DNA from: Harmothoe impar
Taxonomy: Eukaryota; Annelida; Polychaeta; Phyllodocida; Polynoidae
Assembly: GCA_947462335.1 (NCBI GenBank)
Contig: OX381710.1
Coordinates: forward strand, 26,319,772-26,383,771
Reading direction: 5' to 3'
DNA: 64,000 nucleotides
The position numbers and the translations under genes are program-made. The notes beneath the pieces are model-generated. The model was not told the DNA's origin. It did not search any database and saw nothing but the letters and a program-made list of their open reading frames with translations. This document shows positions 36,370 to 64,000 of this stretch, piece by piece (position 1 is the stretch's first letter; the number at the start of each line of letters is the position of its first letter).

Positions 36370-36861
36370 ATGGACGACAGGGTGCCATTACACGAATATG
36401 ACTCTCCCACCCATGGTCGACATCGTGACGACTACGATGGTAGAAATAGTCGCGGTCGCGACAACTATGACGGCAGAAACAACAATCATGCGGACGACCC
36501 GGATATTAGACATCGGACGCCCTCCTACAATGATGGGGAAACTACAGTGCGTTTCTCAGAGAGCCCCAAACCCAAGAAATCTCCCAAATCCATGTTGAAC
36601 TGCTTTAAGGACAGCAGGAGGATTGACTATGTGCTCATCTACAAGGACAAGTCATTGGATGAGTCGCTCTCTGCCGATGACCGGAAGGAGATGGAGATGA
36701 GGGTGGACTTCCGGGAGCGGTTCCGGAAGGCGATGCTGTTGGAGGGAATAGAGATCCAGACGGAGCGGAGTAACGACCTTATATTCTGGAAGCTCCACAC
36801 CCCATTTGACCGACTGTGTGCAGAAGCCGCCTCTGTCTGCTTGGAAATGCCACTAAAAGGG
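36370..36861 (+). CDS. Anoctamin exon 1: start codon and N-terminal dimerisation domain
   Basis: The 492-nt exon encodes residues 1-164: a D/R/N-rich low-complexity start with [19 protein letters not shown] repeats, then [16 protein letters not shown] and [15 protein letters not shown], the anoctamin dimerisation fold. It ends in phase 0 at a gtgagt donor. Confidence 0.93.
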
Positions 36862-42800: not shown

Positions 42801-45800
42801 AGTTCACCCTCAGGCCAAAAAGTATTGTTGAGGTTCACAATTAAAAAGAATTACTGTACCCGAGAAAGAGACTCCATCATTAGCACCTCAAAGCTGAAGA
42901 AATACCTTAAAATTATTCCTAGGATCAAACACACATCCTATTCCTATAATTCACCTATTGTTAAGTTAATTGTCAGTGAATTCTAATTGTTGTTATCAAT
43001 ACAGTGAAACTTCGTTATAAGGAACTCTGATATAAGGAGACCTTGCTTATAAGGAGCAGAATTGTGTGGTCCCGATTTTCCCCTATACATTTCTATAGTA
43101 AGAAAACTCTCTTAGAAGGAGGTATATTTACCTTAACCTCTGATATAAGGAGGTAATTTAGGCTCATGCTCTTATATTGCACATGCAAACGTTACCCATG
43201 GAAGTCATCTCTCAGGGTTACAGTCACATACTGCTTAAAATTTCCCACCACTCCAGTCCCGAGAGGTTGGAAGAATACTTTTGTGGTTGCCTTAAGGAGA
43301 AAGGGAGATGAAAATATCCAGAAAGAGGACCTAGAGGGATTGTTGACTTGAAGTAATAATGCTCCCGTCTGAATTGTATTAGAATCATGTCTATTAGTGT
43401 ATAGGAGACACCTGTAAGGGGTGTACTGTTATCTGGACCTTAATAAGGCTGACCTTGCTTATAAGAAGGCCTTGCTTATAAGGAGCAAATGGCACTGGTC
43501 CCAAGGTCCTCCTTATAACGAAGTTTTACTGTAGTAGCATATATTTTATGGGGCTGCATCATATCTTTTTTATAGTACCTATATGTGTGAACAAAACCTC
43601 AAATTAGTTTTACCTATTTAAATTGTTATATATATTTTGTATATGTTAAATCTCACCAAGCTGTCCTCTCTCTGCAGGTTTACCCTGGATGCTTCATAAA
43701 GGAGTGTTTTCTGACTGGTTGATCTTACACGATGAATCTGCCAAGGACCCCGCCGAACGGGAAGAGCTAGCCGAGAAACTTGCTGCCTCTGGTCTAAATA
43801 AAGATGAGGTAAGCCACATTCTTAGTCCTAAGTAACAAGTGAAAAACATGTCATATTCTGGAGAACTAACGTGACAAGACATTGTTGATATTTGCCCTAA
43901 ACCCAGTGGTGTAGGAAAAGGGGGCAGCTCCCCCCCCCCCCGAGCACAGAGGAGGGGGGGGGCTGAATATATTTGTTAAGACCCTGTAATATAGTGCGAA
44001 CAATTTCCAACCTTACCATCGCGCATAGGGAAAAATGGGGGGGGGGAGGGCCGGGGTCCCCAATTAAAACTAAAGGGGGATCATAATACGACTTTTTATA
44101 TAAGTCCAACATAAGCGTGTATATGCTATATCATGCATAGAATATGATGCTTATTAAAAGAGGGAAATGGGCCCCCTGCCCCCATGAAGATTTGCTTCCT
44201 ACGCATCTGTAAACCTATGCACGCATTGTGGTATATAAATACACACACACAAAAAGTTCTTCATTCTGGCTTGGTGAAAGCAGCGCTCCAGTGACTAGGC
44301 TACCTATGGAAAAAGAGTTAGTAACCCATACTATACTGCCATATGCCGCACACATCTTACATATCATTATCTAATTGTGTCTATTTTTGTATTTTCTTTA
44401 ATACTTTGTATCATAGACCCCGATTAACAAACTCATATTCTTGTTGCTTTTTCAGGCCTCAATTAAGGTATATGGTGTTCACATGTAATACTGTAGGAAT
44501 AGAGGAGCCTGGATAGATGTCTTGCCTATTGGACAAATTAGAGAATTATGAAACTCATATATATATATATGACACTGACTGGGCTAATGGGTCTTATCTA
44601 AACTGAAAATAAGACCCACTTTTCCAGTCATATAAAAAGTATGTTCTTTGACTCTCATATAAGTGCTCTGTGTGTGGGCTGTCTAGCATGGTGAAATATG
44701 TTTCCAATGGCTCTAAATACTTACATGCTAAGCTTCCAGCATGGTGAAAGCTGTCTTCAATGGCTCTAAGTTCTTACTTGTTCAACTTTCTTCACCAACA
44801 TCTTCCTTCTGCAACACACGGTAGACATAGTGGTTCTCCGGCATTAAACTAATTCCAGTAGCATTACATACAGGAATGTACATGTATTTCTACTTGGTCT
44901 CATCACTTTTTCTACTGGAATTGAATGTGATCACTACGTTTTCAAAGATACTGAACAATGTATTTAGGGAAAGGTAATATAGCCTCTGTTAAGGGTGAAA
45001 ATATATCATATATACCGCAGTATCTTTATTCATTTCATACGAAGAAATTATAGTAGACTATAGAGATTGTCAAATAATTAAACTTAAAAATAAAATATTG
45101 CAGAGTGCAAAAGATACTGAAAGTGCCCCAAAGGTTGGTAATAGTATTGTATGGTGTACTTGTTTACAATGCGTACTTATGTTGTAATGCACCAGATTTG
45201 ATAAGAATCTGTAATACCTTAATTAGGTATAGGTTCTTATTGATTGGTCTAAAATTTATAGGAATCATTTAAGTTAAGCTAGTAGTGTTGCCACAACACT
45301 CGTTTCAGATGATTTCATATTGATAGAACCTGAAGCTGAAGGGAAGGTAGAAACTTACAATATCGCACTTGACATAATTATGGGTTACGTGTTATGGAAT
45401 TAAGCTTATACTAGATCTTATACGGAAGCACTTCTCTGACAAGAACCTTACATTAAGATATAGTAAGAATACACATGCCCATATCATAGACGAATCCAGA
45501 TGAATCAGAAATATGGACATAAGAAAAAAGAAATGGAAAGGGAGGTTGTAATATGATAATAGAATCAACATGAATCAGCAGTACACAATAATTATAATTC
45601 ACACAGTAATTATAATTACAAATAGATATACAGAGTGCACGGTTCGGTATATATGTTAAGTACAGTGTGTGTTTACAATATGAATCTACACCTGCTGCTG
45701 CGATACACCAGTACTAGTATACTACACTCAAAAAGTAAACTTGTCTCCAGACTCTTCAAAGTGACGGTCATAAAATAAACAAGTCAAAAGCTCTTCTAAG

Positions 45801-48800
45801 TGACAAGGAAGCGGGTCTTCTAGCTGGAGAGATAAAAGACCCACTTGGCATGTGCCAGCCAAAAACCCGACATTTGCCAGCTCCAGATTCTATTTGTGGG
45901 ATTGTAACCTGATAGGTTAGACAACTTTTTATTTTATGATAGTCACTTCGACGAGTCTGGAGAAAAGTTTTTCAGTGTAGCATGTATCTCACGGGCAACA
46001 CTGTGTAGCAATGTATCAATGCTCTATCACCATGCTTCACATAATATGCCATTGCTTAGTGTTGCTACTCACACGTATCAAGAGTCGCTAAAACAATTTA
46101 CACAAAACTGTCCACGTATATAACCAGTAATGTGATCAATACTATTGCATGAGTATATGGATTTAATAGATACAGAAATGTCACCTTATTCAGTTGATGC
46201 GACAATGTCATTCTCTTTTTCAATATGGTATAAAATGGCCTTTGAATTTGGCAGGAGGACATGGATGCAATGATAGAGGAGAAGGAGCTGTTAATGCCAG
46301 ATACACGCCGAGAATTAGCAAAGACATGGGCTACTTTCAAGTGAGTTAACTCATTATTGTGCGATTTGGGGTGATTTGAGACAAAGTAATAGCCCCATGA
46401 CCTAAATAGCTGCCACTTTATCTAATCATGAATAAAATGTATTCTTCTATACCTTATATGCCGATACTAAATAAATATCCAGACCATAATTGCCATCGGA
46501 AAATCTGTATTGAGGTACAATACCTTTGTTTCAAACAGTAATAATGCAATCTAAGACACTATGTACATATTACACTATTATTGCAGAAGTCCTGTACACG
46601 GTTCACTGTACCCCCATAGGATCGTAATATCTATATGTGTAAATTCTGATCTTTAAGGGTGAAATATCAACCTCTGTGGAAGATCCGGAACTACTTTGGT
46701 GAAAAGATTGCGCTCTACTTTGCCTGGTCAGGGACTCTCATCACATCCTTGTGGATTCCTACGATATTTGGACTCGTTATATTTTTCTATGGTCTAGGTC
46801 TCAGGTAAGATTTATGATGGACTGGTTATGCCTGGTGCTTAAAATAGACAGGCGCCTATTTTTAGTGCGCAAAGTCACCGCTTATTCAAAACCTGGTGCT
46901 TGAACGTGATGGTGCGCTAGTTTTGCAATGTACATTATGAAACAATAACACAATACCGGGAAACATATAATAGTATATATCCATCACAAATCATTCAAAA
47001 AAATGTACAATCTTAGAGTATAAAAGCAGGATTAACAAGAAATCCATTTACGTCATGAACTGGAGTATAGATTGACTAATTAATTTAAGGAAAAAATATA
47101 AATATATATATATATATATATAGGCCTAGTATAGTTATAACTAGTAATGGGATATATCATAGTATCATATCTGAAAACTAAATCTTTTACAGCATTGCAA
47201 AGCGAACCAATGAAAACACTCCAAATAACATTACTATCAGTGGTAATGCGACAGAAACCGAAGATGATATTATTAGAAAGTAGGTCCAATATTTCAAGAT
47301 ATATATTATATTTCTTGTAGCAGCATATCGCAATTACGGTCTATACGACATTTATATAGAAATAACCACTCTAAACATTTAACTATATTCTTTGACACTT
47401 GATGTATTTTTAATTAATTTTTTTAGTAATGGTCGCATTATGACCAAATGAGAGATTAAGATTATTTGTGCTGTCTAATGAATGTGACTTTATTTGGTAT
47501 ACCAGAAGTCATAATATCATTTACAAAAGGATAGAGGAAAGATAGATACATATACTACAGACAACTATTTAAGGAATGATTCAGCTATGTATATATTTGC
47601 ATTTTTTGTAAATAACGATGTATATGACACTATTCATCATTGGATGCAATACGATATTATCTCTAATTACTTTTCAGGGTAAAAGAGGCTGTAGAAAATT
47701 CCCTCGCTGTGATAAAGGAAGCGTTCGACAATGATGTTACACCATTCTTTGCATTAGTGATTTGTCTATGGGGTAAGCATACTATTTTTCTTGTCTAACT
47801 TTTCGGGATTTTCCCCCCATATACTCTGTTAACATACTTTCCATAGGATATATACCGTCTGCTGTGGGGATTGGCAGCCTGCGGTGCTCAGTAAAGGGCA
47901 ACCCCCCACCCCCCTCAAACACCTGTACCTATAGTGAGAGGACAAGTTTTTCTTTTGGTCTACTAACTGATCGCTCCTCAGCGAGCCACTTCAAGAAACC
48001 AGTGGGTAAGGGATGTTTATACTTATTTAACCTTATATTCAGGTACTGTTTTTCTGGAAGTGTGGAAGAGAAAGAATGCCACGCTTGCTTACGAATGGGA
48101 TGTTGATGGATATGAAGACTTGGAACCAGACCGACCTGCTTTCTATGGCACTCAGCAGAAGCCGGTAAGTGTTATAGTTAATACGGTACATCTTAAGCAC
48201 TTTATTGGCTTTGGGACCTTGTCCCCAAAGCCATTTACCTCACAGACCAGAGTGTGAGCTTTTCGACAAGAAATGACTAGCATAGGCCCCCTTGGTCATT
48301 GTTAGATATAGCCCTAGCTGGCCCTTAAACCTTGCCTAGGACTGGCATGCCCATGTGTCCTTGTAGGTGTGTGCAAGACTAATTTATCCTAGATCTTGTT
48401 TTCAGTTACTGCATGTAGAACCAATGTACCTTGTGGTAAGGCCTAGACATCTTGTGAACAGCCATATTTTGAGTTCTCTAATGTAGCTGTCAATGGCAAG
48501 GATAGGTACCAGCCTAATAACTATTGACTCCTATGTCAAGCCAAGCTGTCAATGTCAATGCCAATTCCCATACTTTGCACATACAGGACCTATACTAGAA
48601 GTGGAATGGGTCCAGGGTGGCTCTTGAAATCACTCAAGCCCGCCCAAAGACAAACTGTGAAGTCCAACATAATTACCTTCCCCCACCCAACACACATGCA
48701 CCAACCCTGAAATAATATTTTACAGTCTTTAAAGGAAGGCCATCACAAGTCCTCCTTGTGCCCCCCTCCTCCTCCCTGTGCCTCCCTGTGCCCTCTCCTC

Positions 48801-51800
48801 CTCCTCCTCCTGCCTCTGCCCTCTCCTCCTCCTGCCTCTGCCCTCTCCTCCTCCTGCCTCTGCCCTCTCCTCCTGCCTCTGCCCTCTCCTCCTCCTCCCT
48901 CCTTTCTCTGCCCTCTCCTCCTCCCTCTGTCCTCTCCTCCTTCCTCTACCTCCTCCTACTACCCCATCTACCCCTCTCCCCCCACTCTACCCCATTTTCC
49001 TCCTTCCTGTTACCTCCTCCTCCCTCTGCCCCCTCCTACTACCCCATCCTTCACCTCCTCCCCCACCTCTACCCCATTTTCCTCCTTCCTGTTACCTTCT
49101 CCTCCCTCTGCCCTCCCTCTGCCTTCCCTCCTTCTGCCCCTCCTCCTCCCTCTGACTGCCAAGATGGCTGCCGAAAACTCAAGATTGTCTGATTTCCTTG
49201 TGTGATACATGGATAAGAGGGTTTTCTGGGATGTAGAATCCATTTTCAGGCTCACAATTTCAATTCGGGAAATTTCCAAGATGGCTGCCAAGATGGCCAC
49301 CAAAAACTCAAGATTGTCTGATTTCCTTGTGTGATACATGGATAGTAGGGTTTTCTGGGGTGTAGAATCCATTTTCAGGCTCAGATTTTCAATCTGAGAA
49401 ATTTCCAAGATGGCTGTCAAGATGGCCACCAAAAACTCAAGATTGTCTGATTTCCTTGTGTGATACATGGATAGTAGGGTTTTCTGGGGTGTAGAATCCA
49501 TTTTCAGGCTCAGATTTTCAATCCGAGAAATTTCCAAGATGGCTGCCAAGATGGCCACCAAAAACTTAAGATTGTCTGATTTCCTTGTATGACACATGTA
49601 TAATAGTTTTTTCTGGGGTGTAGAATCCATTTGTAGGCTCCGATTTTTGATCCAGGTAATTTTCAAGATGGCTGCCAAGGTGGTATTTGCATAGGCATCA
49701 ATGGAGTGCATCGCCACCAATGGAATTGCATTGGTACCTATTTGCTTCCATTGGCACATATTGGGTTCTATTGTTATACCAGCTGCAGTAAAACCAATAG
49801 AAATTAAAAAGATTTAGCTAAGTGCATGTAATTTACTGACCATGCAGTGTTGCTGCAAACCATCAAACATGAATTGCATAAGAACCCCAGAAACACCAAA
49901 AATTATAAATCTATGCCCCCTCGTTTTCTCACCTGTAGTTCATAACAATCCTATAAAACCCAAAGCCACTACGGCTTTGCCGTAAAATCCTTGAATTTGT
50001 CCCCTTGTATGGTTTTTAGGGGAGATGCGCTTAATATGTCTAAAATGTTAAAGTTCTAAATATGTTTGTTCATTTGTTTCCAATGACTTGTCAAGCAAGG
50101 TGTTATATAGCGGCCAGAGATTACACAGTTTTCCTTTGTTATTCACAGGACCCAGTAACGCTGGAACCCCAATGGTTCTACCCACTCAAACAACAACTGC
50201 TGAAATATGCTATATCTGCTACTGTGCTTATTTGTATGGTAAGTTATAACTTAGAAGCATGTTTTCAATCGATAGTCTTTTTAGCAGACAGAATGAACAC
50301 TACTATAGAGGTCTGCACTCTACAACAATACACATGTTTCCCACATGAAGAGCTACTGCCACACTCTTCTGTTTACTATTACATATATATCTAAGTAGCA
50401 GGTTCCCTAATTTTTCCTATGACAAATCAGACTTGTGACAAAACGTGGGAAAACGTGACATTAGGGGAAAACACCTTTATTTAAGTTCATGTCTTCAGCT
50501 ACAATTTGATGCTTCAAGCATCAGAATATTTGAAATAGTTGCTGTGAAATGACATCTCAAACATGGGATGGTAGGGACATGTAGGAATTCAGAATAGACT
50601 GCAATGTGATCACATATCAATCTATTTTCAAATAATCCATATAAATCATAACTATTAGAAATTAAACCAATAAATGCATATTATTGTACATAGATTTGGA
50701 TCTGGTAGGAATATTGGTATTCTGTTTTCAGTTCTGAAATCCTCATGGATGGGGCAATTGGATAGGAATAATTTATTCCGAAATAATGAATTGATGTTTG
50801 GCATGGCAACCAGACGTCAACAAATGGGCTAAAAATGGCTAAAAACGTTCTTTTGACATTCCAAATAAGACCAATTTAGAATTAAAATAGAATTTTGATA
50901 TTAGCTTCAAAAGATTCATTGGGAAAAGTTAGTCTTAGATCATTTTCTCTTAAGTATTCACATTTTTAGCTGTATCTCCTGAAATATCATGTTTAGAGCA
51001 TTTGTGACAAAACATGGGAAAACATGACATTAGGGGAAAACACCTTTATTTAAGATCATATCTTCAGCTACAATTTAATGCTTCAAGCATCAAAATATTT
51101 GAAATACTTGCTGAATAATGACATCTCAAACATGGGATGGTAGGGACATGTAGGTATTCAGAATAGACTGCACATACATCAATCTATTTTCAAATAATCC
51201 ATATACTGCACATATATCAATCTATTTTCAAATAATCCATATGAATCATAATTATTAGAAATTAAACCAATAAATACATTATTATTGTACATAGATTTGG
51301 ATCTGGTAGGAATATTGGCATTCTGTTTTCAGTTCTGAAATCCTCATGGATGAGACAATTGGATAGGAATAATTTTTATTCCAAAAGAATGAATTGATGG
51401 TTGCCATGACAACCAAATATCAACAAATGTGCTAAAAATGGCTACAAACGTTCTTTTTACACTCCAAATAAGACCAATTTAGAATGAAAATAGAATTTTG
51501 ATAATAGCTTCAAAAGGTTCCTCGGGAAAAGTTAGTCCAAAGTCATTTTCTCTTAGAGGGGCCGATCTCTGAGAGTGGAGGAGAGTGGATCATGTAGTTC
51601 ATGTAGTAAAAGTGGTCTGCATGGATCACTAGTCACCCCTGTGGTTATAATTACCTTGAAGTATTCACATTTTTTGCTATATCTCCTGAAATATCATGTT
51701 TAGAGCATTTATAGCTATTCCCCCCAATGTTACAATTTCCCAGGTTTCGTCACATTTATGGCTATTCCCCCTAATGTTACGATTTCCTAGGTTTCGTCAC

Positions 51801-54800
51801 TATTCTGTTCTGAAGGGATTCCTAGTAAAGCCTTCCAGTTTTCCAGTATCTAGGGATGTTCTGTTCCAAATACCTACATATTAACATATATACCGCCCAG
51901 GAGGAGCTGTATTGAGGGGCCTCCATTTGTATATTTCAAGTTGTATTTTTGAATTATCCTTCATATTAGTAGGTACCGCGCATAAGCGAGTCATAGCGGC
52001 GAAATCGCCGATCCTCAGAGAAAGAATGTCAATCTGTACAAGCCTCCAGAGACCAGGAAAATTAATGTACAGAAATCTCAAACCCCTCAATAGAAAGATA
52101 TGGATCTGATCGTTTGAAATATCATTGGTATTGAGTAGGTTGTACTTGCTATGCATGTGCAAATGGGTCTTCACTGGGGGTCACTTTGGGTCAAATTACA
52201 GGTTTTGTCACCTGTTTTCCTGCAGCTGATTTGACTCTCTGTCATAAAAACTGGATTTCCCATTGCACCATACATTGCATATGAAATATACCAGCACCAT
52301 TGATTAGGATACACATCAGGCTTCACTGTGGTCCCCGGGACGAACAAAAATTATTAAAAATTATTACTTTTGTAGCATTTAATAGATACAAATTAGGTTA
52401 AAAAACATATTATTATTGAAAAAAAATGTTCGTCCCGCCCCTCACACTGAAGTTTAAAATAGTTATTACAACCTTATGAAGAGAGCTAAGCAATCCTATG
52501 GATGGTGCAGTGGCAAAATTAAATCATAGTTATTTTTCTATACAAATCCTAAATAGCATACTGGTAAGCTTAAAAAAAAGAAGTTAATTTCCATAAAAAA
52601 TTATCATGGTATTGATGTTGACATGTCATGGGTAGTATGTGTTTCGAATTACAAGAGGATTGGACTGCTAGTTAACGATCTATGGCACCATTTGCAGTAC
52701 AGCATTTGTGACAAACATACATATTAGTGATCTGGCCATTTTTAAATGAATATGACTCAAAAGATACACATAGGAAATGATCTGAGAAAAGTTATTCATG
52801 CTCTATGTAACATGTAGATACATTACATGTAATACCAAAGTCCTCAAGTATGTATTACTTGAACTAGGTATGGGGTCAAAATGGCAGAATGGCCATATTC
52901 AGTTGTAAGGGATTGGTATTTCTGCCATGTTAGAGGGTACAATATTTCAATACAAATATGTCTGAACATAAGATATTTATGCAATGTCCATATATATAGT
53001 TGATTGGGAAATATCTTTTTTCAACTGCGAATTGTCATCAAAATAAGTGTAATATCTCTCTGAAATTGGCCCATTGGCTATTGAAAATGAAAGATGCTAA
53101 ATGGCTGAAACTTTTATTTTTGGAAAATTCATATAAAATTAACTACTGAATGGATCTTAACATAGTTACCATCATTCTTCAGCATTCTTTATCAGCTTCC
53201 TAACCAGTATAACAATTTTGTTCAGGGAAGGGTTTCTGTAAACTATCCGTGGTACCTAATATTAGTCTTGTTTTACCCTAGGTGTTAATGGTGTTTATCA
53301 GTGCGGCGGCTGTCATCCTCTACCGGGTCTTCATGACCGTAGACTACTGTACAGTGGTAGACAGTAACACGTGCCTCCTCATCACTACTGTAGCATCCAG
53401 TATACTCAACGCTGTCTCCATTCTTCTATTAGGCAGGGTAAGATTGACTTTACATTTACCATGGTCTTTTTGAATTTTCATATTACATGAATTTTTAAAT
53501 CAGCAAGATAATCATATTCATCTGAGGAATCCTTTTTCGGACACTGCACTATAGAAAGCAGGTAATTTGTTTATCATCGCGATGGCTCTTGCTTTGCATA
53601 GGAAATATTTCACAAGACCCTCCGTTACCAAAAACAGCCAGGGGGGACATTTCGGGACAATACTTAAATCGATGTTACCGACTCATCTGATTATTTGTCT
53701 CTTATACAATTGTTTCTTCCATTCCACAGCTATATGAAAAGTTGGCATATGTTTTAACTAATTGGGGTGAGTATTAAGTGAAATCAATTCATTTTTCTAA
53801 TAGAATGAGGGTTTAAATGAATTATTTGACAATCCTGAGCTGTCTCATTATATTAGCAGGTACACTTAAATGAGTAATTACAGTAGGCCTATATGTAAGG
53901 GCTTTTATGGTGCAAAGTTCTAAAAACCAAGTAAATATCCTAGTATATAATAGGGTAAAGGTAGTGTTATCTATCTTGCATTCTGTGCGGTATTTACTAA
54001 TAATCTACCGATGAATAATAATCATACTACTAAATCTTATACATGACATGAGTGCAGTTATTTTGGTATCATTAACCTATTGACCTTTGCTCTAACAGAG
54101 AACCACCGGACCCAAACTCAATACGATGACGCGCTCATCCTAAAGTTGTTTGCCTTCCAATTTGCCAACTCCTACACATCCCTATTTTATATAGCATTTT
54201 TCAGAAAGGTAGGTCACCATTTCTCTTGAATCACATTACAGTATAAACCTTGGTATAACGGCTTGATGAGACATTGGAATGGGTGATATGAAGTCCTTGT
54301 AGGGCTGTGAATTCTTTTGGCATTTAAAAGAAATAGGCTTATTGACATATTTCTCGTAATTTAAACACTCCTTCGAGGATGTCGGGTGAAATTTGAGTTT
54401 GAACACTTTCAATTTTGGCCTCGAGGTGGCTGTTTTATTGATAGTAATTTGTGGTTTCTAATTCAGGACGACTGGCCGAATGGTATATTCGGAATGGGTC
54501 CCAAGTACCAAGATGGCTGCACCGGCAACTGTATGTCCATGCTGTCCCTGCAGGTTCTCGTCCTAATGTTGATGAAACCGCTGCCCAAATTCCTAAAGGA
54601 TGTTGTTCTTGCGTAAGTCTTTAACACTAAAATTAAAAATGATGTAAACAGACTGGCAAATGTATTGTAATTTTGTATGTAACATAATAATCAATAGATA
54701 TCTGAGCTAAAGCATAATAGATTCTTTCATAAAGAACTAAGACAACATGATTTCCTTAGATTTAGAATTTGGAATCTAAACCTTATCTTATTACATACAG

Positions 54801-57800
54801 ATACGTAAATAACATTTATCTTATGGTTTCCAGAGGAGGGCTGATTTTGAGAAGCCTAGTAAATTCCTTTGTTTGCCTTTGATATTTAACTTAAGCATGT
54901 TTCACAGGCGGAGAGGAGCCAATATAAAATGTCCAACATATGTCTCTATTCAGGTGGGTGTTAAGGAAGTGGAGGAAGAGGAAGTGGTTCAGAAAGGCTG
55001 TACAAATAGAGCCCCAGGACAACGGGAAAGTCATCCTCAGCTCGTTTGTGGAACGTGAACGTCTAAAGTCAGAACTTGGTGACTTCACGCTGGGGGAGTA
55101 CACCGAGAAAGTCATCGTATACGGCTTCCTAATGGTGAGTTGACTGTATTTTGATGTAGCAGATGGTGCTTTTGTTGATGCTAGTTTATATAAGATACAT
55201 ATAATATCTATCATTGGCATAATAACTATCATCTAAGATTTATAGCTTAATTTTCCTTGCTGGAATCTTTTGGGGCAAAATGGTGGAGTACATGATATGA
55301 GTTCCATCCATGGGTCATAGACATTGATTGAGTTATCATGGATAGTGAAAGCTGACCGGTGGCACCACCACTGAACCATGCAGACACACTCCAGACACAC
55401 AGCCATGACCACTGGTCAGCCATTGACCACTGGATGCCATGAGAGCTCATTCACTTCAGCAGAAGAATCCGCATATATGAAGTCATAAATACAGTAGCAG
55501 GAAGCAATTGAAACCCTGAAATAAATTAATGTGCTGTAGATATTGAATGTGTTACTTTAATTTGACAGCTGTTCGCGGCATCCTTCCCACTGGCCCCGCT
55601 CATCGCTCTGCTCGTTAACCTGTTTGACATCCGGGTAGACGCTCGGAGGATGCTGTGGTTAAACAGGAGGCCACTGAGTACTATTGCTCAAGATATAGGT
55701 AGGTCATATTAACATCAACAACTGATCAATGCATTATGAAGCTGCAGAAAGCCTTTCAGATTAACCACGATAGTTCATCACATAGTGAGGGCATACACAG
55801 GCTCGACGGGACAGACTCACACGGGAGCGTCAACAAAATAATCTGTCCAATCTTAAAAGGCCACTCTTAAAAACGTTACTAACTTAAATTCAATGGACTA
55901 TCTTAAACAAAACATTTATTTAAGATAACCGGTTCTACCCCTCTCTTTTCTAGATGGCGCCAGTGATGAACCACTGGTTAGACTATACACTCCATTGTAA
56001 GATAGGCTAGTTGACTAGTATGTAATGGGGGGCTCTGCCCCCCCCCCAACCCCCCATTTCTTTTCTTTTTTTCTTTTAGATGTTTATGTTGTCTGATCTG
56101 GGTGTAGGGTATATACTATAAAGGCAGACCCCAGCTAGAATAGTGTGGGTATGTGGCAGATACAAGTCTCAATACAAAACAGTACATTCTTAAATCAATG
56201 ATATTACATGTATCTTAAATAAAGTGTTTAAGATTGGACAGTCTAAGACAGTTTAAGACTGGACAGATTATTTTGTTGACGCTCTCGGGTGAGTCTGTCC
56301 ACTTGTGCCATACACAGACATATAGTATGTTTGTCTATGGTGAGGGTAAACCTGGTTATCTAAATGATAATCCTACTCTACTGGAATATATTCTTATTCA
56401 AAAAATAGAATTTGATATCATCTCTGTGTCTATACTCCTATTCAGCATGGGTTCTATTATTTCAGGGATGTGGTACAACATCTTGCAGTTCCTGAACATC
56501 GCGGGAGTTATCAGCAACTCATTCCTTGTCGCCTTCACATCCAGCTGGGGTTCCAAGTACACCCTCGTCGAGAAACTGTGGATAGTCGTTATCTTTGAGG
56601 TTAGTTCTCCCACTCCCCCCATTCTTTTAGATGGTAATTCAGATGGCCTTTGCTCCTTTGGATATATATGCTGATGATAACAATATACTTTATGACCATT
56701 ATTGGCTAAAACTTGTAAAAGAAAGACAATTTCAGTATAATAATTATTATATCCGAATTGAGAAGAAAGATGGACTTATTTGAAACTAGTAAAGGTTGCT
56801 TTTCCTATTACAGACAAATTGATATTTAACTATATCAAAATTGTCCGGTTAACACAAAGTCCATTTAGAAATATTCACAACTCGGCAGTTTATGCACTTT
56901 GACCTTGATCAAATGGCTTATTGATAGCAACCGATGATCATTTCGCTCATTAGCTCAGTGCCATATAAACCTTGAAATCACCTGGTGAAGCCTAATTCTG
57001 GTGAAATGTTGTGAGCTTTGATTTTCAAATACACTTTCCACCTTGTGAAATTATGTTTTTTATTAATCTGTTGATCATATCAAAATAGGGATATAGGATT
57101 TCTACAGAATACTCTATGATAAATTGTCCAATTGATTGAGTTATTGCAAATGTGAATATGCATAATGCTATAAAGATGAATACCTATGTTGTCACTATAT
57201 CTTATAGCATAGCGTGTTTGGGCTGAAGTTCTTTTTGGCGTCTCTTATACCCGACGTACCTAGTAATGTTGAACTGGGTGCTCGTCAAGTAAGAACATTG
57301 AAACATAAAGGATTGCCTATGTGAGACTACTAACCCCCATGAAGCTGCACTCCCATTATATAAATAACACAAATATAAAAACTACATATTTTATTTTGTT
57401 ATCTGCAAATGGTATTTTCCAAATATCATAAACAGAATTGTAAATCTCTTTCCAAAAATTATTTTCCATCCAACAAGTTATGTATAATGATAGTGCAGTT
57501 TGTACAGTAAGCTAAGACATGGTTACGGTGTTGGCATCGGCCAAGGGCTGAAATATGTTCAATACATATTCACATGCATGCACGTTGTGAGGGAAATTGA
57601 TTGATCTAATTACTAAAACAAACAACTTTTTGTTCAAACTCATGACAGCATACCATATTCGGAATAAAGCTTGGCATAAAAATATGGTTCCCTGATGTTC
57701 CTAAGGGAGTTGCTCTAGCCCAAAGACGGGTAAGGTCATGATGTCCGAGTGAAGGTCGCTATGTCTTTCGGTCATACCTGTTATCATTGCCTGTCACTGC

Positions 57801-60800
57801 ATGTGCACATTGCATGGCTACAGCACAATTGCAACACGCTTTAGATCATACAAAAGATAATAATACGGTTAAATGCTCTATATTCTTTTGCAGTATGTGC
57901 TTTATTTGGGATTGCAGGCTAGAGTTACTGTCAATACAAAAGTTGACTTCACTATGTCCCTAAACTATTTGTCGAAAAGCACCCAATTCGGATTGTGAAA
58001 TATTGGAATATGATCCAACTTTTGGCTGATTTTATCTAACTACCTAACACACAGTTGTTTCAGTGCATGCGTATTGCTAATACATACCCATATAAGGAAA
58101 GGCACTGCTCTGCATGGAATATTCTCATATTGAACACTTCTGCACAGATGTACACGCATGCATTGTATTCATACTGGGGCTGTTGCGCGCACTGCAATAA
58201 CGTTCAGAAATGTTTGGTTTTGCGACTTCCTATAAACCCAATTTAAGCAATAGAGGGTTTATATATTACTATCTATGTAGTAACATAGCAACCAACTTTA
58301 TTTGTGACCAAAACCAAAGTCGCAAAACCAAGAAATGTGATTTCTGGTATAATGTCTATTTTGTTTATCATGTTTGTTTACTTACACGTCACCTTAATAG
58401 TTTGATCACTAACACGTTGCTAATTTCTCCTTGTTTGGCACCAGCATGTGATATTTGCCGTCATGTTAGTCATTGCCATTGCTATTCCTGATGTTCCGGG
58501 TCATGTGAGGCTATCACAAAAGAGGGTGAGTTACTTCTCCATGGGTGACACAGGTGCGGATTTAGGGGGTATCTTTTTTTTTTACCAAAATCTGTCCTTT
58601 TTTTTTAAATGTATACAATTTTAAGGGATTTTTCAGAAATAGAAGGCCTAAGTCCCCTTTTCAAATACCCGGATCCGCCCCTGTTAAGACACCACCAATA
58701 GTATAGCTAGTATGATCATGTATGCAGCTGTACGTAGGCTTAGAAAGACCCTTCAGCTGATTTTAAAGGTATAAAAAATGTACCTCAACTGCGATCATAG
58801 CTATCAATACAAAATATACAATGAGACATATGACTTTGGCTTGAGTGGAACAACTTGCATATTCCATGATATTCTGCCATTAAAAATATCAACCTCCAAC
58901 TTCAACCTGTTAACAAATCTTTTTAAAGCTGGTAAAAATGTCTTTGGACCTATGGAAACGTGAATTGAATTGATCACTGCTTCTCCTTCTAGGCACAATG
59001 AGATGCACACACATTGGCTTGGCACCCTCTGTTTATTTTACAAATCCTGCCTGTGAATTGCTATGTAAAGATCTATATTAAGGGCTTTACATTCTTCTTT
59101 AAATCGAATACGCCTAAACATGAGGAGGGGGATGTTACAAGGAGATAATATGTGCTTAGACAAGAACTATTACTGGGGGAATGGCGACTTTCCACCAAAT
59201 GAGTGTTAGTGATGCATGGAGGGGGCTGGAGGCTTGCGGATCTGGGGAACACACTTTTGGACCATCAAAGGGACAAAAAGAAATTGGATTCTACTTAGGA
59301 GGGGGTAACATGAATTTATCACTATTCAGCCTCAAATTCTGTGCGTTACTAGATGTATATATATATATGTATATGTATATATATATATATGATAAGGGTT
59401 GGCCGGGGAAAATAACGCTTTGGCGCTCACAGGGCCGCATCAAGACCGTTCCCTAATGTGTTAAACACCTTTGGTTTGATGTGTAAGGAGTGTGATATAT
59501 ATTTGTGTGGTATTTTGTACAAAATGTTGACATACGACTAAACATGTATTCATGTTCCAAAACAACCAAAATAATATCATGTACGGCTACTCATACTTAT
59601 GAAACGTAATATTTAAATAAGTTGCTTACTGTGGGTACTAAGAGGCATCAACTAAACCAATATGGTTATAGTATTTCATTCATTTTTATGTCGATTGAAA
59701 GTTCATAAACGTTAATATTTCATATAGATGATCGCTGAAATAATAATGCTCATATGTATTACTCAACTATTGATTGCAATCTGAAGTAGATTTATTCAAT
59801 AATCGCATATTTGAGATTTACTTTTAATAAAGCTTTTTTAGCCTGCTTGTTGTAGAGTTTGATGATCTACAATGAATCTGCATATATTTTTTTAGGAAAA
59901 GTACCAGGTCGGTAGGATATTGGAAGTGGCAGCCAAAGCGCCTTTCACTGACGAAGGGAAAGAGTTCAAGTAAGCAGATTCCCGTTTCTCACTACATGCC
60001 TCTAACATTCTGTCCTCTTTCCTGTCCTGAGTCCTAACATGCAGGGATGCCAAGTGTGACGATCTTTTACAATTTTTGCCCTTATTACGCCCATTACGAT
60101 TTCAGATGTCAAATTATGATTTTTAGCACCTCTGAGGTGTTAATATACAAAATGTACAAACACAAAACGTTTTTTTGGGGTCCGGAATTGTAACAAATAC
60201 GATTTTGGGATAGGGTAACTTGACATATCTGTCAAATGTAATGATAGTTTCTACCAGTACATCTAACTTTTGTACGGGTATTTCTTGAAGTGGTTCCCTC
60301 AAAGGTCTGACTGAGTCACTGTCAGAGTCACACAGGTCCTGGTCCATAGAGGCTATGGATATTATTTATTGGCTTTAAGGCAGGGTCCCAAAGAAAGAAA
60401 GAATTGAAATCTTATACACGTTAATAGAATGGTTATAAACAACAACTGTAACAAAAATGAAGAAAATCGGTCCGTCCCGATTTAGTTCTTATCACATCTA
60501 TATTGGTGCAATTAGACAATCAGATGATAACGTCATTATCCACATTTTATTCATCTTTTTAGAATCTATCAAAGTGTAATGAACTCTAGTTGCATATCTC
60601 TTATAAGTTGATCAGGGTAATGAGAACTGACATATTCATAACGCTTTACAAAATAAGGCTTTACATCAATAAGTGTTTTTTAAACCTTCTTCGCTTACTT
60701 TCACTCATACTTTATATGTCTATAACTTGCTACTAGCTTTTTGCTGTTTTTACTGTATGTATCACTAACTTGCTAACATAGTTATTTGCTTTGTACATGC

Positions 60801-62574: not shown

Positions 62575-63651
62575 CATCATCATTATTATTATTATTATTA
62601 TTATTATTGTCGTCATTATTGTTGTTGTTATTATTATTATCATTATTATTATTATTATTATTATTATTAGCATCATCATTATTATCATTATTTCAATATT
62701 AAAAGACACTATATCTATATGCCCTGTATTATGCTTTTGACAAAAACTTCCAATCTTAAATCTACCCTATTAGAGGAATACTGTTTAATAACTTAACCTC
62801 CCATGCTTCAGTGCTGCGGATAACTCTTCAGCTGCAATAGTCTCTGAAACAGACCCAGAGGGGAGGAAAAGAAAGAAGAAGAACAAGAAGAAAAGGAAGA
62901 ACAGCGATGGAGGTGAGTAGTACTTGTCAATAAACGCTGAGAAAAGTATGAATGATGCATGCTTCTTGGTTAAATTCATGATTAGTCATCAGGACCAATG
63001 GTTAACGATGACCAATCAAAACTTGCTGTAGTATGCATCATTAGTATGAATTCTTCATAGATCATTTTCTTTTTTGGTTGAGACTTTTAGGTGCTTTTGA
63101 TAGTAAAATGGATACACAGCATTTTAACCACTGACATACCTTATTCTCTGTCTATGTTGTTGGATTAGCTGTTACACTGAAAAGTTAAAATCGTAGATTG
63201 TCCTGTAAACATCTCTCCCTTTTAACTAACCCCCTTTTCGTGAAGTAATTTTCCTAGACTGATTTCACCATTAGTTGAGACTATGCAGAGTGATAACAGA
63301 TCATCATGTTATCAGCGTCACCATCTAACTATCGTTCTTGATAGCCTTCTATAGAAGTTCACCGTGAGCGGGCCTTCGGGAGTAGATTCATAATATTGTA
63401 GGTTTGGTTCCTTCGTTACACTGATGGCATCATAAATTCTAAGATAAATGGATTCCACAAAATGTTCCTTAAAATGAAAGATTCATGCATCTGCTGCTAT
63501 ACAAAACTCAGTACAGACTTTCAAATAAAACCTGTTAGTAGTCTAGAAAGCGAATACATAATTCACTTTTCGGTATTTGATGCTAACGTTTCAGAGAGTG
63601 ACTCTTCAGAAATCAATCGAGACGACTCATTATCTTGGTCTTCAGCACCTG
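36370..63651 (+). CDS. Anoctamin (TMEM16) family membrane protein, 25 coding exon positions
   Basis: Anoctamins are dimeric ten-helix membrane proteins that act as calcium-activated chloride channels, lipid scramblases or membrane tethers. Exons joined in matching phases give about 983 residues. Residues 1-164 include a disordered charged start and a dimerisation domain ([25 protein letters not shown]). Then come [15 protein letters not shown] and the first helix with [12 protein letters not shown] (about 349-398), a loop with N-glycosylation motifs, [16 protein letters not shown], a [20 protein letters not shown] loop, [66 protein letters not shown], and the last helix with PDVP. The family call is certain. 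The paralogue is not: WENHR and the very short loop before the last helix recall ANO8/10, while the N-terminal domain and GCxxxC region recall ANO1-7. Confidence 0.97.
37707..37787 (+). CDS. Anoctamin exon 2
   Basis: The 81-nt exon is phase 0-0 and encodes [20 protein letters not shown] and onward, a basic stretch of the cytosolic domain. It has an ATGCAG acceptor and a gttaga donor. Confidence 0.8.
39360..39435 (+). CDS. Anoctamin exon 3
   Basis: The 76-nt exon encodes [20 protein letters not shown] and onward, and leaves one base for the next exon. Confidence 0.83.
41512..41612 (+). CDS. Anoctamin exon 4
   Basis: The 101-nt exon encodes [15 protein letters not shown] and [12 protein letters not shown], the conserved xFxxAPFxxxxxxxF ... 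FFxxAxRSxL block before the first helix. It has a TTTTTTGCAG acceptor and a gtaagt donor. Confidence 0.92.
41846..41924 (+). CDS. Anoctamin exon 5
   Basis: The 79-nt exon encodes [20 protein letters not shown] and onward, continuing the RSxxxHHIL block of the family. Confidence 0.9.
43002..43531. mobile_element. pogo/Tigger-like MITE, copy 2 (inverted relative to copy 1)
   Basis: The ends CAGTGAAACTTCGTTATAAG and CCTTATAACGAAGTTTTACTG are flanked by TA. Its reverse complement matches the copy at 20785-21326 end to end. It lies in the intron between anoctamin exons 5 and 6. Confidence 0.78.
43678..43808 (+). CDS. Anoctamin exon 6
   Basis: The 131-nt exon encodes [20 protein letters not shown] then an acidic helix ([14 protein letters not shown]). 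It matches the GLxxLLxxGxxxxxxPLHD region of the family and ends in phase 0. Confidence 0.92.
43904..44209. mobile_element. hAT-like MITE with CAGTGGYGTAGGAA ends, copy 2
   Basis: The ends CAGTGGTGTAGGAA and TTCCTACGCATCTG are flanked by TAAACC on both sides, a 6-bp duplication. It is the same family as 31608-31955 and lies in the intron after anoctamin exon 6. Confidence 0.78.
44456..44467 (+). CDS. Possible 12-nt microexon (Ala-Ser-Ile-Lys)
   Basis: TTGTTGCTTTTTCAG precedes GCCTCAATTAAG and gtatat follows. It is phase 0-0, so it could be added between exons 6 and 7 without frame change. This is sequence inference only. Confidence 0.35.
45104..45133 (+). CDS. Possible 30-nt microexon ([10 protein letters not shown])
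   Basis: ATATTGCAG precedes ten open codons, followed by gttggt. It is phase 0-0 between exons 6 and 7. The acceptor tract and donor are weak. Confidence 0.3.
46255..46340 (+). CDS. Anoctamin exon 7
   Basis: The 86-nt exon encodes [20 protein letters not shown] and LAKTWATF. It is the charged segment just before the first helix and leaves two bases for the next exon. Confidence 0.92.
46658..46804 (+). CDS. Anoctamin exon 8: first membrane helix
   Basis: The 147-nt exon encodes [20 protein letters not shown] and the hydrophobic run [16 protein letters not shown]. The KYQP...[12 protein letters not shown] block is a family hallmark. Confidence 0.96.
47097..47122. repeat. (AT)n microsatellite
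   Basis: About 12 AT units lie in an anoctamin intron. Confidence 0.85.
47193..47279 (+). CDS. Anoctamin exon 9: first extracellular loop
   Basis: The 87-nt exon encodes a hydrophilic loop with two N-glycosylation motifs, Asn-Ile-Thr and Asn-Ala-Thr, in [11 protein letters not shown]. It ends AGAAA before gtaggt. Confidence 0.88.
47678..47772 (+). CDS. Anoctamin exon 10: start of second helix
   Basis: The 95-nt exon encodes [20 protein letters not shown] and [12 protein letters not shown] one-base overhang completes the Gly before [10 protein letters not shown]. Confidence 0.93.
48043..48164 (+). CDS. Anoctamin exon 11: second helix and cytosolic loop
   Basis: The 122-nt exon encodes [19 protein letters not shown], the family's FLExWKRxxAxLxYxWD motif, then RPAFYG. 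It is phase 0 at its end. Confidence 0.96.
48755..49160. repeat. Polypyrimidine minisatellite
   Basis: A C/T-only tract built from CCTCTGCCCTCTCCTCCTCC units with few purines on the plus strand, in the intron between anoctamin exons 11 and 12. All three plus-strand frames stay open because of composition. Confidence 0.9.
49161..49690. repeat. 129-bp tandem repeat, about four copies
   Basis: GATTGTCTGATTTCCTTGTG recurs at 49183, 49312, 49441 and 49570, exactly 129 bp apart. Each unit starts with CAAGATGGCTGCCAAGATGG. Because 129 is a multiple of three, the minus strand shows a long open frame with a 43-residue period; I treat this as non-coding. Confidence 0.93.
50149..50238 (+). CDS. Anoctamin exon 12: loop into third helix
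   Basis: The 90-nt exon is phase 0-0 and encodes [20 protein letters not shown] and the start of the third helix (ISATVLICM). Confidence 0.94.
50434..51720. repeat. Tandem duplication of about 570 bp in an intron
   Basis: GTGACAAAACGTGGGAAAAC at 50434 recurs with changes at 51004, and sequence matches throughout (for example ACATCTCAAACATGGGATGG). The second copy holds an extra segment of about 100 bp at 51555-51655. Confidence 0.88.
51900..53270. other. Anoctamin intron with little recognised
   Basis: AT-rich intron before exon 13. The only structure I see is a weak inverted repeat ending GGGACGAAC / GTTCGTCCC at about 52336-52436. Confidence 0.4.
53282..53437 (+). CDS. Anoctamin exon 13: third and fourth helices
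   Basis: The 156-nt exon encodes [18 protein letters not shown], a short loop with [11 protein letters not shown], and the fourth helix [14 protein letters not shown]. Confidence 0.95.
53730..53766 (+). CDS. Anoctamin exon 14 (37 nt)
   Basis: This small exon encodes [12 protein letters not shown] plus one base, the LYxxxAxxLTxWE motif that ends helix four. Confidence 0.95.
54099..54208 (+). CDS. Anoctamin exon 15: loop and fifth helix
   Basis: The 110-nt exon encodes [20 protein letters not shown] and [18 protein letters not shown] is typical of ANO8/10 and RTQTxY of ANO1-7. Confidence 0.97.
54467..54612 (+). CDS. Anoctamin exon 16: extracellular loop and sixth helix
   Basis: The 146-nt exon encodes [20 protein letters not shown] and the helix ending [12 protein letters not shown]. 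By alignment from memory with ANO1, the calcium-site Glu654 position is Asp here and the Asn650 position is Lys. Confidence 0.95.
54954..55134 (+). CDS. Anoctamin exon 17: basic cytosolic loop and start of seventh helix
   Basis: The 181-nt exon encodes a basic run ([12 protein letters not shown]) and [18 protein letters not shown] keeps both acidic residues that bind calcium in helix seven (Glu702 and Glu705 in ANO1). Confidence 0.96.
55569..55698 (+). CDS. Anoctamin exon 18: seventh and eighth helices
   Basis: The 130-nt exon encodes [20 protein letters not shown] and [13 protein letters not shown] matches ANO1 Glu734 and Asp738, with a conservative Glu to Asp change. Confidence 0.97.
56466..56599 (+). 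CDS. Anoctamin exon 19: ninth helix and start of tenth
   Basis: The 134-nt exon encodes [33 protein letters not shown] and [10 protein letters not shown]. The loop before the last helix is only a few residues long, unlike the long Cys-bearing loop of ANO1-7. Since both sides are in one exon, no exon has been missed. Confidence 0.96.
57208..57288 (+). CDS. Anoctamin exon 20a: alternative last-helix exon, version a
   Basis: The 81-nt exon is phase 0-0 and starts [12 protein letters not shown] and ends [15 protein letters not shown]. It is homologous in length, phase and motif to the next two exons. It has a TATAG acceptor and a gtaaga donor. Confidence 0.92.
57649..57729 (+). CDS. Anoctamin exon 20b: alternative last-helix exon, version b
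   Basis: The 81-nt exon is phase 0-0 and starts [12 protein letters not shown] and ends [15 protein letters not shown]. Of its 27 residues, 11 match version a and 14 match version c. It places Lys five residues before the PDVP Asp. Confidence 0.92.
58445..58525 (+). CDS. Anoctamin exon 20c: alternative last-helix exon, version c
   Basis: The 81-nt exon is phase 0-0 and starts [12 protein letters not shown] and ends [15 protein letters not shown]. It has a TTTGGCACCAG acceptor and a gtgagt donor. A small hAT-like repeat lies 25 bp downstream. Confidence 0.92.
58551..58683. mobile_element. Short hAT-like MITE fragment next to exon 20c
   Basis: CAGGTGCGGAT at the left and ATCCGCCCCTG at the right are inverted ends of a 133-bp T-rich segment. 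No clear target duplication is seen. Confidence 0.5.
59353..59391. repeat. (TA)n microsatellite, imperfect
   Basis: ATATATATATGTATATGTATAT and following units lie in an anoctamin intron. Confidence 0.85.
59896..59969 (+). CDS. Anoctamin exon 21: start of C-terminal tail
   Basis: The 74-nt exon encodes [20 protein letters not shown] and onward. The EKY start matches the helix that follows PDVP in the family (xxREKYL). Confidence 0.88.
61017..61112 (+). CDS. Anoctamin exon 22
   Basis: The 96-nt exon encodes [20 protein letters not shown] and [11 protein letters not shown]. It fits the incoming two-base overhang and leaves two bases. Confidence 0.75.
61205..61228. repeat. (TA)n microsatellite
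   Basis: About 11 TA units lie between anoctamin exons 22 and 23. Confidence 0.85.
61380..61439 (+). CDS. Anoctamin exon 23
   Basis: The 60-nt exon encodes [19 protein letters not shown]. It has an ATGTTTCAG acceptor and a gtatag donor, and its phases fit both neighbours. Confidence 0.7.
62481..62693. repeat. (ATT)n microsatellite with ATC variants
   Basis: About 70 trinucleotide units, mostly TTA/ATT with blocks of ATC and GTT, lie between anoctamin exons 23 and 24. Confidence 0.95.
62812..62912 (+). CDS. Anoctamin exon 24: polybasic tail
   Basis: The 101-nt exon encodes [17 protein letters not shown], then a run of 14 residues that are nearly all Lys or Arg ([12 protein letters not shown]). 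Such tails bind acidic membrane lipids in Ist2-type anoctamins or act as nuclear signals; its role here is inference. Confidence 0.75.
63595..63651 (+). CDS. Anoctamin exon 25, last seen in window
   Basis: The 57-nt exon encodes [20 protein letters not shown], an acidic Ser-rich segment. A gtaatc donor follows. If the donor is not used, the frame stays open to a stop at 63813-63815, so this could also be the terminal exon. No polyadenylation signal is evident before the window ends. Confidence 0.6.
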
Positions 63652-64000
63652 GTAATCACTTCTCAAGTGTGGGACTTATTGAGGCCTATAGCCGGCGTGG
63701 CTCTTCTTTAAAAATCGAGGGTATTTGCAGTGAATCAACTCTCATATCTCACAGATATACCTTCACTGCATACCCGCATGATAAAAGATCAGAAATGCTA
63801 GAAGTATATAACTAAGTATTTACCATCTCCATACCAATCCCGCCATTCTCTAGATTTAAAATGGCGCTCATTGTATTATATCGCCTCAATTCACAGGGGA
63901 TTTTACCCTGTGTTTCATATAAATTTTGTTACATAAATTTACTTTATTGAATAGTCTTTTTTGACAAAATGACCACTGGCATTTCTGACAAACTAGCATG

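What the first reader, a model, noticed from the sequence alone, without database searches (positions are those of the whole stretch)
57208..58525. Three homologous 81-nt exons form a probable mutually exclusive cassette for the last anoctamin helix
Seen directly: three consecutive open segments of exactly 81 nt, each with its own AG acceptor and GT donor, all phase 0-0, each starting His and carrying Phe at residue 4 and PDVP at residues 15-18. Pairwise they share 10-14 of 27 residues, so they are old duplicates kept under selection. Only one copy of this helix segment makes sense per protein. Since each is a multiple of three, skipping or doubling would not shift the frame, so exclusivity must come from splicing control. 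I do not know of such a cassette described for TMEM16 tenth helices.
Basis: partly seen in the sequence, partly recalled or inferred. Interest (0 to 1): 0.88.

Follow-up and report, generated by a model that had tools for sequence, protein, structure and literature searches.

The report
Three swappable helix exons in anoctamin
An animal gene, perhaps from a segmented worm, for a calcium-activated membrane protein of the anoctamin family carries three old, constrained versions of the exon for the inner half of its last helix, most likely swapped one at a time by splicing, which would let one gene make proteins that differ at a calcium-sensing site.

Summary
Three consecutive 81-nt exons (57208-57288, 57649-57729, 58445-58525), phase 0-0 with AG/GT borders, sit between the TM9 exon and the C-terminal exons of an anoctamin gene model (36370-63815; 929 aa with any one copy). 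They are the three best matches to a TM10 profile in the window (54.6, 38.2, 55.4 bits; next best of 127,840 27-mers 3.5). Codon positions 1-2 are kept far better than position 3: old duplicates held under protein constraint.

Each copy encodes the inner half of TM10 and the start of TM10', with the TM10 ligands of the third Ca2+ site known from TMEM16F. The aspartate is in all copies; copy B has Lys and Phe at the two backbone-ligand positions, seen in 0 of 91 homologous segments.

Of six other anoctamin loci found in the same genome, five show one TM10 exon in the 9.8-9.9 kb scanned; the sixth has two homologous TM10 terminal exons.

One copy per mRNA is inferred: no RNA was at hand, and no docking/selector pairing was found. 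New member of a known kind (mutually exclusive exons); not seen for anoctamins in the searches made.

The parts
57208..57288 (+). TM10 exon copy [28 protein letters not shown], phase 0-0; the copy closest to the family consensus (16 of 27; B and C 13)
   Evidence: borders tatag|CAT...CAA|gtaaga
57649..57729 (+). TM10 exon copy [28 protein letters not shown], phase 0-0; Lys at residue 11 (57679-57681) and Phe at residue 14
   Evidence: borders gacag|CAT...CGG|gtaagg
58445..58525 (+). TM10 exon copy [28 protein letters not shown], phase 0-0
   Evidence: borders accag|CAT...AGG|gtgagt
56466..56599 (+). upstream exon: TM9, short loop and outer part of TM10 (...LWIVVIFE), ends phase 0
59896..59969 (+). 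downstream exon, rest of TM10' ([11 protein letters not shown]...), starts phase 0
48043..48164 (+). TM2 exon; FLEVWK aligns Glu (codon 48057-48059) and Lys (48066-48068) with E395 and K398 of mouse TMEM16F, the TM2 side of the third Ca2+ site
   Evidence: alignment; roles from passages of PMC9484709 and PMC8640346
36370..63815 (+). whole gene model: E1 36370-36861, 39360-39435, 41512-41612, 41846-41924, 43678-43808, 46255-46340, 46658-46804, 47678-47772, 48043-48164, 50149-50238, 53282-53437, 53730-53766, 54099-54208, 54467-54612, 54954-55134, 55569-55698, 56466-56599, one of A/B/C, 59896-59969, 62812-62912, 63595-63815
   Evidence: all phases agree, one terminal stop, 929 aa with A, B or C. 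Pfam Anoctamin 7.5e-128 and Anoct_dimer 4.8e-14 on an earlier partial model. The last exon rests on an open frame and an AG border only.
58214..58331 (.). 118-bp element in the B-C intron with 15-bp perfect terminal inverted repeats and a 7-nt direct repeat (GAAATGT) at 58207-58213 and 58332-58338; read as a small transposon (MITE-like), not a splicing element
   Evidence: other copies in the genome not countable (request unanswered)

Best explanation
A cluster of three tandem-duplicated, probably mutually exclusive exons in a TMEM16 (anoctamin-4/7-like) gene of a lophotrochozoan, perhaps an annelid. Shown: three homologous in-frame exons with splice borders, old and protein-constrained, at the place where homologs have one TM10 segment. 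Inferred: one copy is spliced per mRNA, joining the TM9 exon to the C-terminal exons, and the choice varies by tissue or stage. Inferred function: the swap changes the inner half of TM10, the third Ca2+ site and the start of TM10', and so tunes the Ca2+ sensitivity and dimer coupling of one channel or scramblase. Copies A and C have Ala and Ile at the two backbone-ligand positions, as most homologs do; copy B has Lys and Phe there and should weaken or alter that site. Undetermined: how exclusivity is enforced; frame shift cannot do it, because every copy is 81 nt in phase 0.
For: Architecture; gene model in frame with A, B or C. Profile ranks the copies 1-3 of 127,840. Identity at codon positions 1+2 against 3: A-B 31/54 vs 5/27 (one-sided Fisher P 0.0008), A-C 30/54 vs 7/27 (0.010), B-C 33/54 vs 10/27 (0.035). 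Random drift from one copy to the observed divergence never gave an open segment with the other copy's profile score (0 of 5000 in each of four runs). Inferred AG border before TM10 residue 1 in 6 of 6 paralogs. In three gene calls from other sources (P0124, P0128, P0129) the frame runs into unrelated letters right after FE, and in P0125 a stretch stands between RR and EKYQ, as retained introns would give; both borders so look older than this genome. A second gene of the same genome has two homologous TM10 terminal exons after one set of upstream exons. Third-site residues S854, I857, D859 (TM10) and E395, K398 (TM2) of TMEM16F map to exon residues 11, 14, 16 and to TM2 of this gene (passages). 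Hydropathy: skipping leaves no TM10 peak.
Against: No RNA evidence of any kind. No intron pair pairs better than shuffles (the best of six was reached by 3 of 40), and the one strong hairpin looks like a transposon. Copy B is the poorest match and has the lowest acceptor score, so it could be little used. Leave-one-out splice scores (14 acceptors, 15 donors of the gene; exons found later not included) put the acceptors of A, B and C (2.9, 2.0, 4.3) in the lower half of the gene's others but inside their range, and donor C (10.7) above them; the sites are not distinctive. My first scoring, which put the acceptors below all others, was biased by self-inclusion. Joint inclusion is not excluded by hydropathy: combinations holding C as a later copy show a second peak near 2.0. 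No homolog isoform with a B- or C-like exon was recovered, though the protein set is clustered at 90% and would hide it.
Confidence: 0.78

Rival explanations
1. One copy (probably A or C) is the working exon; one or two others are relics or minor exons rarely spliced in.
For: B scores 38.2 bits against 54.6 and 55.4, has residues at 11 and 14 seen in none of 91 homologous segments and the lowest acceptor score of the three. No RNA to show use.
Against: No stop or indel in any copy, intact splice borders, positions 1-2 kept better than 3 in all three pairs, 0 of 5000 in four neutral runs. A very recent loss of function would not be seen by these tests.
Confidence: 0.15
2. Two or three copies are included together, giving a protein with repeated TM10 segments.
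For: All are phase 0-0, so joint inclusion keeps the frame; a later copy C would give a second hydropathy peak near 2.0.
Against: Each copy is only the inner half of TM10, so repeats would disturb the topology (inference). A TM10 pattern matched once in the second half of 110 of 120 listed homologs and not at all in 10; printed segments of those 10 showed no repeat by eye (one region each). The only repeat seen, Ixodes P0001, doubles the whole core.
Confidence: 0.04
3. Assembly artefact: two alleles or paralogs stitched together.
For: None found; one genome assembly only.
Against: The copies are 10-14 of 27 identical in protein and share no long repeat in their introns, so they are not alleles. 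A DNA search with 81 bases from 57209 gave one place in the 1.51-Gb assembly (B and C not searched). The contig is 84 Mb long.
Confidence: 0.03

Closest known systems
Mutually exclusive tandem-duplicated exons in ion channels (e.g. NALCN exons 15a/15b, Slowpoke, voltage-gated calcium channels)
   Same: Tandem homologous exons encoding one functional element; in NALCN the swap places Lys against Glu in the selectivity filter (PMC3557258, abstract and passages). Human tandem-exon substitutions are enriched in ion channels and membrane proteins (PMC9741552, passages).
   Different: Here the protein is a TMEM16 and the swapped element is the inner half of TM10 with the third Ca2+ site; three copies; no RNA proof.
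Dscam-type clusters with docking/selector RNA pairing (seen in listing abstracts)
   Same: More than two copies; here each is a multiple of three, so something other than frame shift must enforce exclusivity.
   Different: No docking/selector pairing above chance was found in this single genome.
Splice variants of vertebrate TMEM16A, B and F (PMC8835819, passages of its splice-variant section)
   Same: Anoctamins diversified by splicing with effects such as altered Ca2+ sensitivity; one TMEM16F variant (V3) has an alternative 3'-terminal exon, an analogue of the paired last exons of the second gene here.
   Different: The TMEM16A/B segments described lie in the N-terminus and first intracellular loop; no homologous TM10 copies and no mutually exclusive exons are mentioned in the passages seen.
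Second anoctamin of the same genome, C5:66.38 Mb (L037, L038)
   Same: Two homologous TM10 exons after one set of upstream anoctamin exons, both starting AG|His; 26 of 50 residues identical.
   Different: They are terminal exons with their own stops, so exclusivity would follow from last-exon choice.

Membership tests
Mutually exclusive exons (criteria as in PMC5740500, passages) | neighbouring internal exons with sequence similarity, same reading frame and similar length | tested here: met
   81/81/81 nt, phase 0-0, 10-14 of 27 identical, shuffles 0 of 20,000
Mutually exclusive exons (criteria as in PMC5740500, passages) | compatible splice sites and no in-frame stop | tested here: met
   AG/GT borders, open frames
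Mutually exclusive exons (criteria as in PMC5740500, passages) | junction reads from every copy to the flanking exons and none between copies | not testable with these tools
   no RNA reads of this species at hand
Docking/selector-controlled cluster | one docking site complementary to a selector beside each copy | tested here: inconclusive
   no excess over shuffles in 6 of 6 intron pairs by whole-intron duplexes, a test weak for short sites; two 14-nt pairs with at most one mismatch, a number reached in 7 of 30 shuffles; one genome, so no conservation test
Anoctamin/TMEM16 | Pfam Anoctamin and dimerisation domains | tested here: met
   427.7 bits (cut-off 28) and 53.2 bits (cut-off 22), partial model with copy A
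Anoctamin/TMEM16 | third Ca2+ site: Glu and Lys in TM2, Asp in TM10 | tested here: met
   FLEVWK aligns with E395/K398; PD at residues 15-16, aligned for A and B with P858/D859 of TMEM16F, and at the same place in C by sequence
Anoctamin/TMEM16 | channel or scramblase activity | not testable with these tools
   needs expression

The most novel reading that the evidence does not exclude
TM10 with its third Ca2+ site is an evolutionary hot spot for exon swapping in anoctamins of this lineage. Two of the seven anoctamin loci found in one genome duplicated the TM10 exon in different ways (internal triplet, paired last exons). In the triplet, copy B puts Lys beside the third-site Asp, as a built-in charge that could replace or repel the ion, making an isoform whose gating no longer depends on third-site Ca2+.
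Probability: 0.25. Interest if true: 0.78.

Novelty: new member of a known kind. Interest (0 to 1): 0.6.

Why it matters
The third Ca2+ site of TMEM16 proteins is known from structures and mutants as an allosteric site whose role still needs to be worked out (PMC8640346, passages). A gene that swaps exactly this segment while keeping the rest constant would be a natural experiment: three isoforms differing within 27 residues, one with a charged residue at the site. It would also add the TMEM16 family to the channels tuned by exon swapping.

Tried and rejected
Weak acceptors as a signature of alternative splicing: one search put A, B and C below every other acceptor, but that profile had been trained on those acceptors; leave-one-out scoring puts them in the lower half, within range. 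Rejected as evidence.

RNA-structure control: whole-intron duplexes show no excess. The 15-bp perfect inverted repeat 58214-58228/58317-58331 (0 of 30 shuffles) has a 7-nt direct repeat at both ends and reads as a small transposon. Genome-wide copies could not be counted: the request failed; no second copy of its inverted end was found in the window (exact search).

Isoforms in other species: a search with copies C and B in the query returned nothing at E 10 among 54 candidates, not even ordinary TM10 segments, so it says little. Short homologs (49 of 78 candidates at E 0.001) gave border information only. Residue sharing of C with the clade nearest the window is a weak hint at most (C above A in 2 of 5 of that clade and 9 of 88 other segments).

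Comparative DNA: two genome-contig scans and two viral-contig scans found no relative.

Extra 81-nt segment 37707-37787 (phase 0-0): no match in the 169 homologs held beyond a 5-residue word at E 3.0; left out of the final model, though it was in the queries.

Structure prediction was not run: spliced proteins are not a letter-for-letter translation of the window, which that tool asks for.
Full report
WHAT IS THERE. They lie in an anoctamin gene on the + strand, 36370-63815. I assembled 21 exon positions by reading the window and by tblastn with homologs. All phases agree, and with A, B or C the model is 929 aa with one terminal stop. An earlier partial model gave Pfam Anoctamin 7.5e-128 and Anoct_dimer 4.8e-14. 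Named homologs are anoctamin-3/4/5/7-like proteins of molluscs, annelids, a brachiopod, nemerteans, echinoderms and others (1424 proteins at E 0.001 among 7992 scored, 120 listed). A tree of 41 of the 120 plus the window puts the window next to Dimorphilus gyrociliatus, support 98/81; the window row, taken without TM10, fills 44% of the columns. Dimorphilus is an annelid, but Owenia, also an annelid, falls elsewhere in that tree, so the phylum is a guess. The own genome has 1.51 Gb in 736 contigs.

CHANCE AND CONSTRAINT. Identities are A-B 11, A-C 10, B-C 14 of 27, each BLOSUM62 score reached by 0 of 20,000 shuffles. A profile of 49 non-redundant TM10 segments gives A 54.6, B 38.2 and C 55.4 bits; the fourth-best of 127,840 27-mers in the window has 3.5. 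The segments were cut from the 120 listed homologs (91 unique) with a pattern that itself asks for H/N at residue 1, P/A at 15 and D at 16; all 120 matched it. Nucleotide identity by codon position (1,2,3, of 27 each) is A-B 15,16,5; A-C 13,17,7; B-C 16,17,10: third positions are near random for A, somewhat above it for B-C, and the others are kept (one-sided Fisher 0.0008, 0.010, 0.035). The duplications are therefore old, and the copies were coding for most of the time since. Drifting one copy at random to the observed divergence never produced an open segment with the other copy's profile score (0 of 5000 in four runs); the observed amino-acid identity was reached in 1, 17, 0 and 0 of 5000. 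A very recent death of one copy is not excluded.

WHICH PART OF THE PROTEIN. By alignment to mouse TMEM16F, residue 1 of the exon is H844 and residues 11, 14 and 16 are S854, I857 and D859. In TMEM16F the third Ca2+ ion is held by the side chains of E395 (TM2) and D859 and by the backbone carbonyls of S854 and I857 (PMC9484709, passages). The outer part of TM10 makes the dimer interface, and its extension TM10' is implicated in contacts with the other subunit (PMC8640346, passages). The window's TM2 has the matching Glu and Lys (FLEVWK). So the upstream exon 56466-56599 holds the outer part of TM10, and the swappable exon holds its inner half, the TM10 ligands of the third site, and the start of TM10'. 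The Asp is present in all three copies. Residues 11 and 14 are Ala and Ile in A and C; in B they are Lys and Phe. Among 91 unique homologous segments none has Lys at 11 (Ala 71, Arg 1) and all have Ile (87) or Val (4) at 14. B thus keeps the ligand but changes its surroundings.

HOW IT PROBABLY WORKS. One copy per mRNA is the best reading (inference). Skipping leaves no TM10 hydropathy peak; A followed by B gives no second peak, whereas a later C gives one near 2.0, so hydropathy alone does not forbid joint inclusion. Frame shift cannot enforce the choice because each copy is 27 codons in phase 0, and the introns between copies (360 and 715 nt) are not short enough for steric exclusion (recalled rule). 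I looked for docking/selector pairing: none of six intron pairs pairs better than shuffles (a microsatellite in the last intron was cut out), and the short cross-intron pairs are at chance level. One strong hairpin, 58214-58331, has 15-bp perfect inverted ends and a 7-nt direct repeat outside both, so I read it as a small transposon. The mechanism of choice is unknown.

PARALOGS IN THE SAME GENOME. A Pfam search of the whole genome gives 31 exon matches, which I group by position into seven loci (counts are lower bounds). I fetched 9.8-9.9 kb from the TM7/8 exon downstream for the six others and scanned the gene's strand. In 6 of 6 the TM10 segment is preceded by AG, at His or Asn. Five have one TM10 segment in that stretch (next best score below zero), and in all six the frame runs on past residue 27. 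The sixth, C5:66.38 Mb, has two: L037 3895-4104 and 7025-7219, each with its own stop, 26 of 50 residues identical; identity at codon positions over the first 39 codons is 29, 30 and 19. tblastn finds one set of upstream anoctamin exons before them and none between or after them in L037-L039. An AATAAA follows the first stop by about 380 nt; none was found in about 880 nt after the second. So TM10 exon duplication happened in two genes of this genome by two architectures, and in the second, last-exon choice would allow only one TM10 per protein. Copies further away would be missed.

BORDERS IN RELATIVES. Gene calls from other sources run into unrelated letters right after FE (P0124, P0128, P0129), and P0125 has a stretch between RR and EKYQ, as retained introns would give. 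Both exon borders therefore look older than this genome. No relative's DNA could be reached.

WHAT IS KNOWN. Mutually exclusive tandem exons are a known kind, enriched in ion channels (PMC9741552, passages), with NALCN as a close analogue (PMC3557258, abstract and passages). A review lists splice variants of TMEM16A, B and F in the N-terminus and first intracellular loop, and a TMEM16F variant with an alternative 3'-terminal exon; its text does not hold 'mutually exclusive' (PMC8835819, passages). Searches for anoctamin or TMEM16 with mutually exclusive exons, exon duplication, annelids, fly gene names and TM10 showed no such cassette in the titles and abstract starts listed; some searches listed 20 of 58, 20 of 830, 20 of 73 and 8 of 12 papers. 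The phrase hit with most mentions of anoctamin (PMC12592175) is a cited title on a calcium channel; the other paper (PMC10003467) was seen in the listing only. The main texts of PMC5740500 and PMC9741552 hold none of the anoctamin gene names that I looked for; their supplements were not seen. Absence from print is claimed for these searches only.

VERDICT. Observation confirmed; interpretation likely right but unproved at the RNA level, with the helix part refined. A new member of a known kind with a specific functional prediction.

Noticed in passing
L037 3895-4104 and 7025-7219 (own genome C5:66382100-66392000): A second anoctamin gene has two homologous terminal exons for TM10 and the C-terminus, each with its own stop; an AATAAA lies about 380 nt after the first stop, none in about 880 nt after the second.
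   Followed up: yes
58207-58338: A 118-bp MITE-like element with 15-bp perfect inverted ends and a 7-nt target-site-like direct repeat in the intron between copies B and C.
   Followed up: partly
37707-37787: An 81-nt open segment, phase 0-0 with AG/GT borders, between the first two exons of the model ([27 protein letters not shown]); not matched by the 169 homologs held, perhaps an optional exon or chance.
   Followed up: partly
11469-12800: A long minisatellite that is open in all three + frames (repeats of ...LYLRYTRDAFCTSDTPETPSVPQIHQ...).
   Followed up: no
P0001 (Ixodes scapularis anoctamin-7 record): The protein holds its TM2-TM10 core twice in a row, which probably explains its top bit score; a gene-model fusion or a real tandem duplication.
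   Followed up: partly
P0010 (Tubulanus) and P0059 (Lineus): Two nemertean homologs, both labelled isoform X3, have strongly deviant TM10 segments; possibly alternative copies there too.
   Followed up: no
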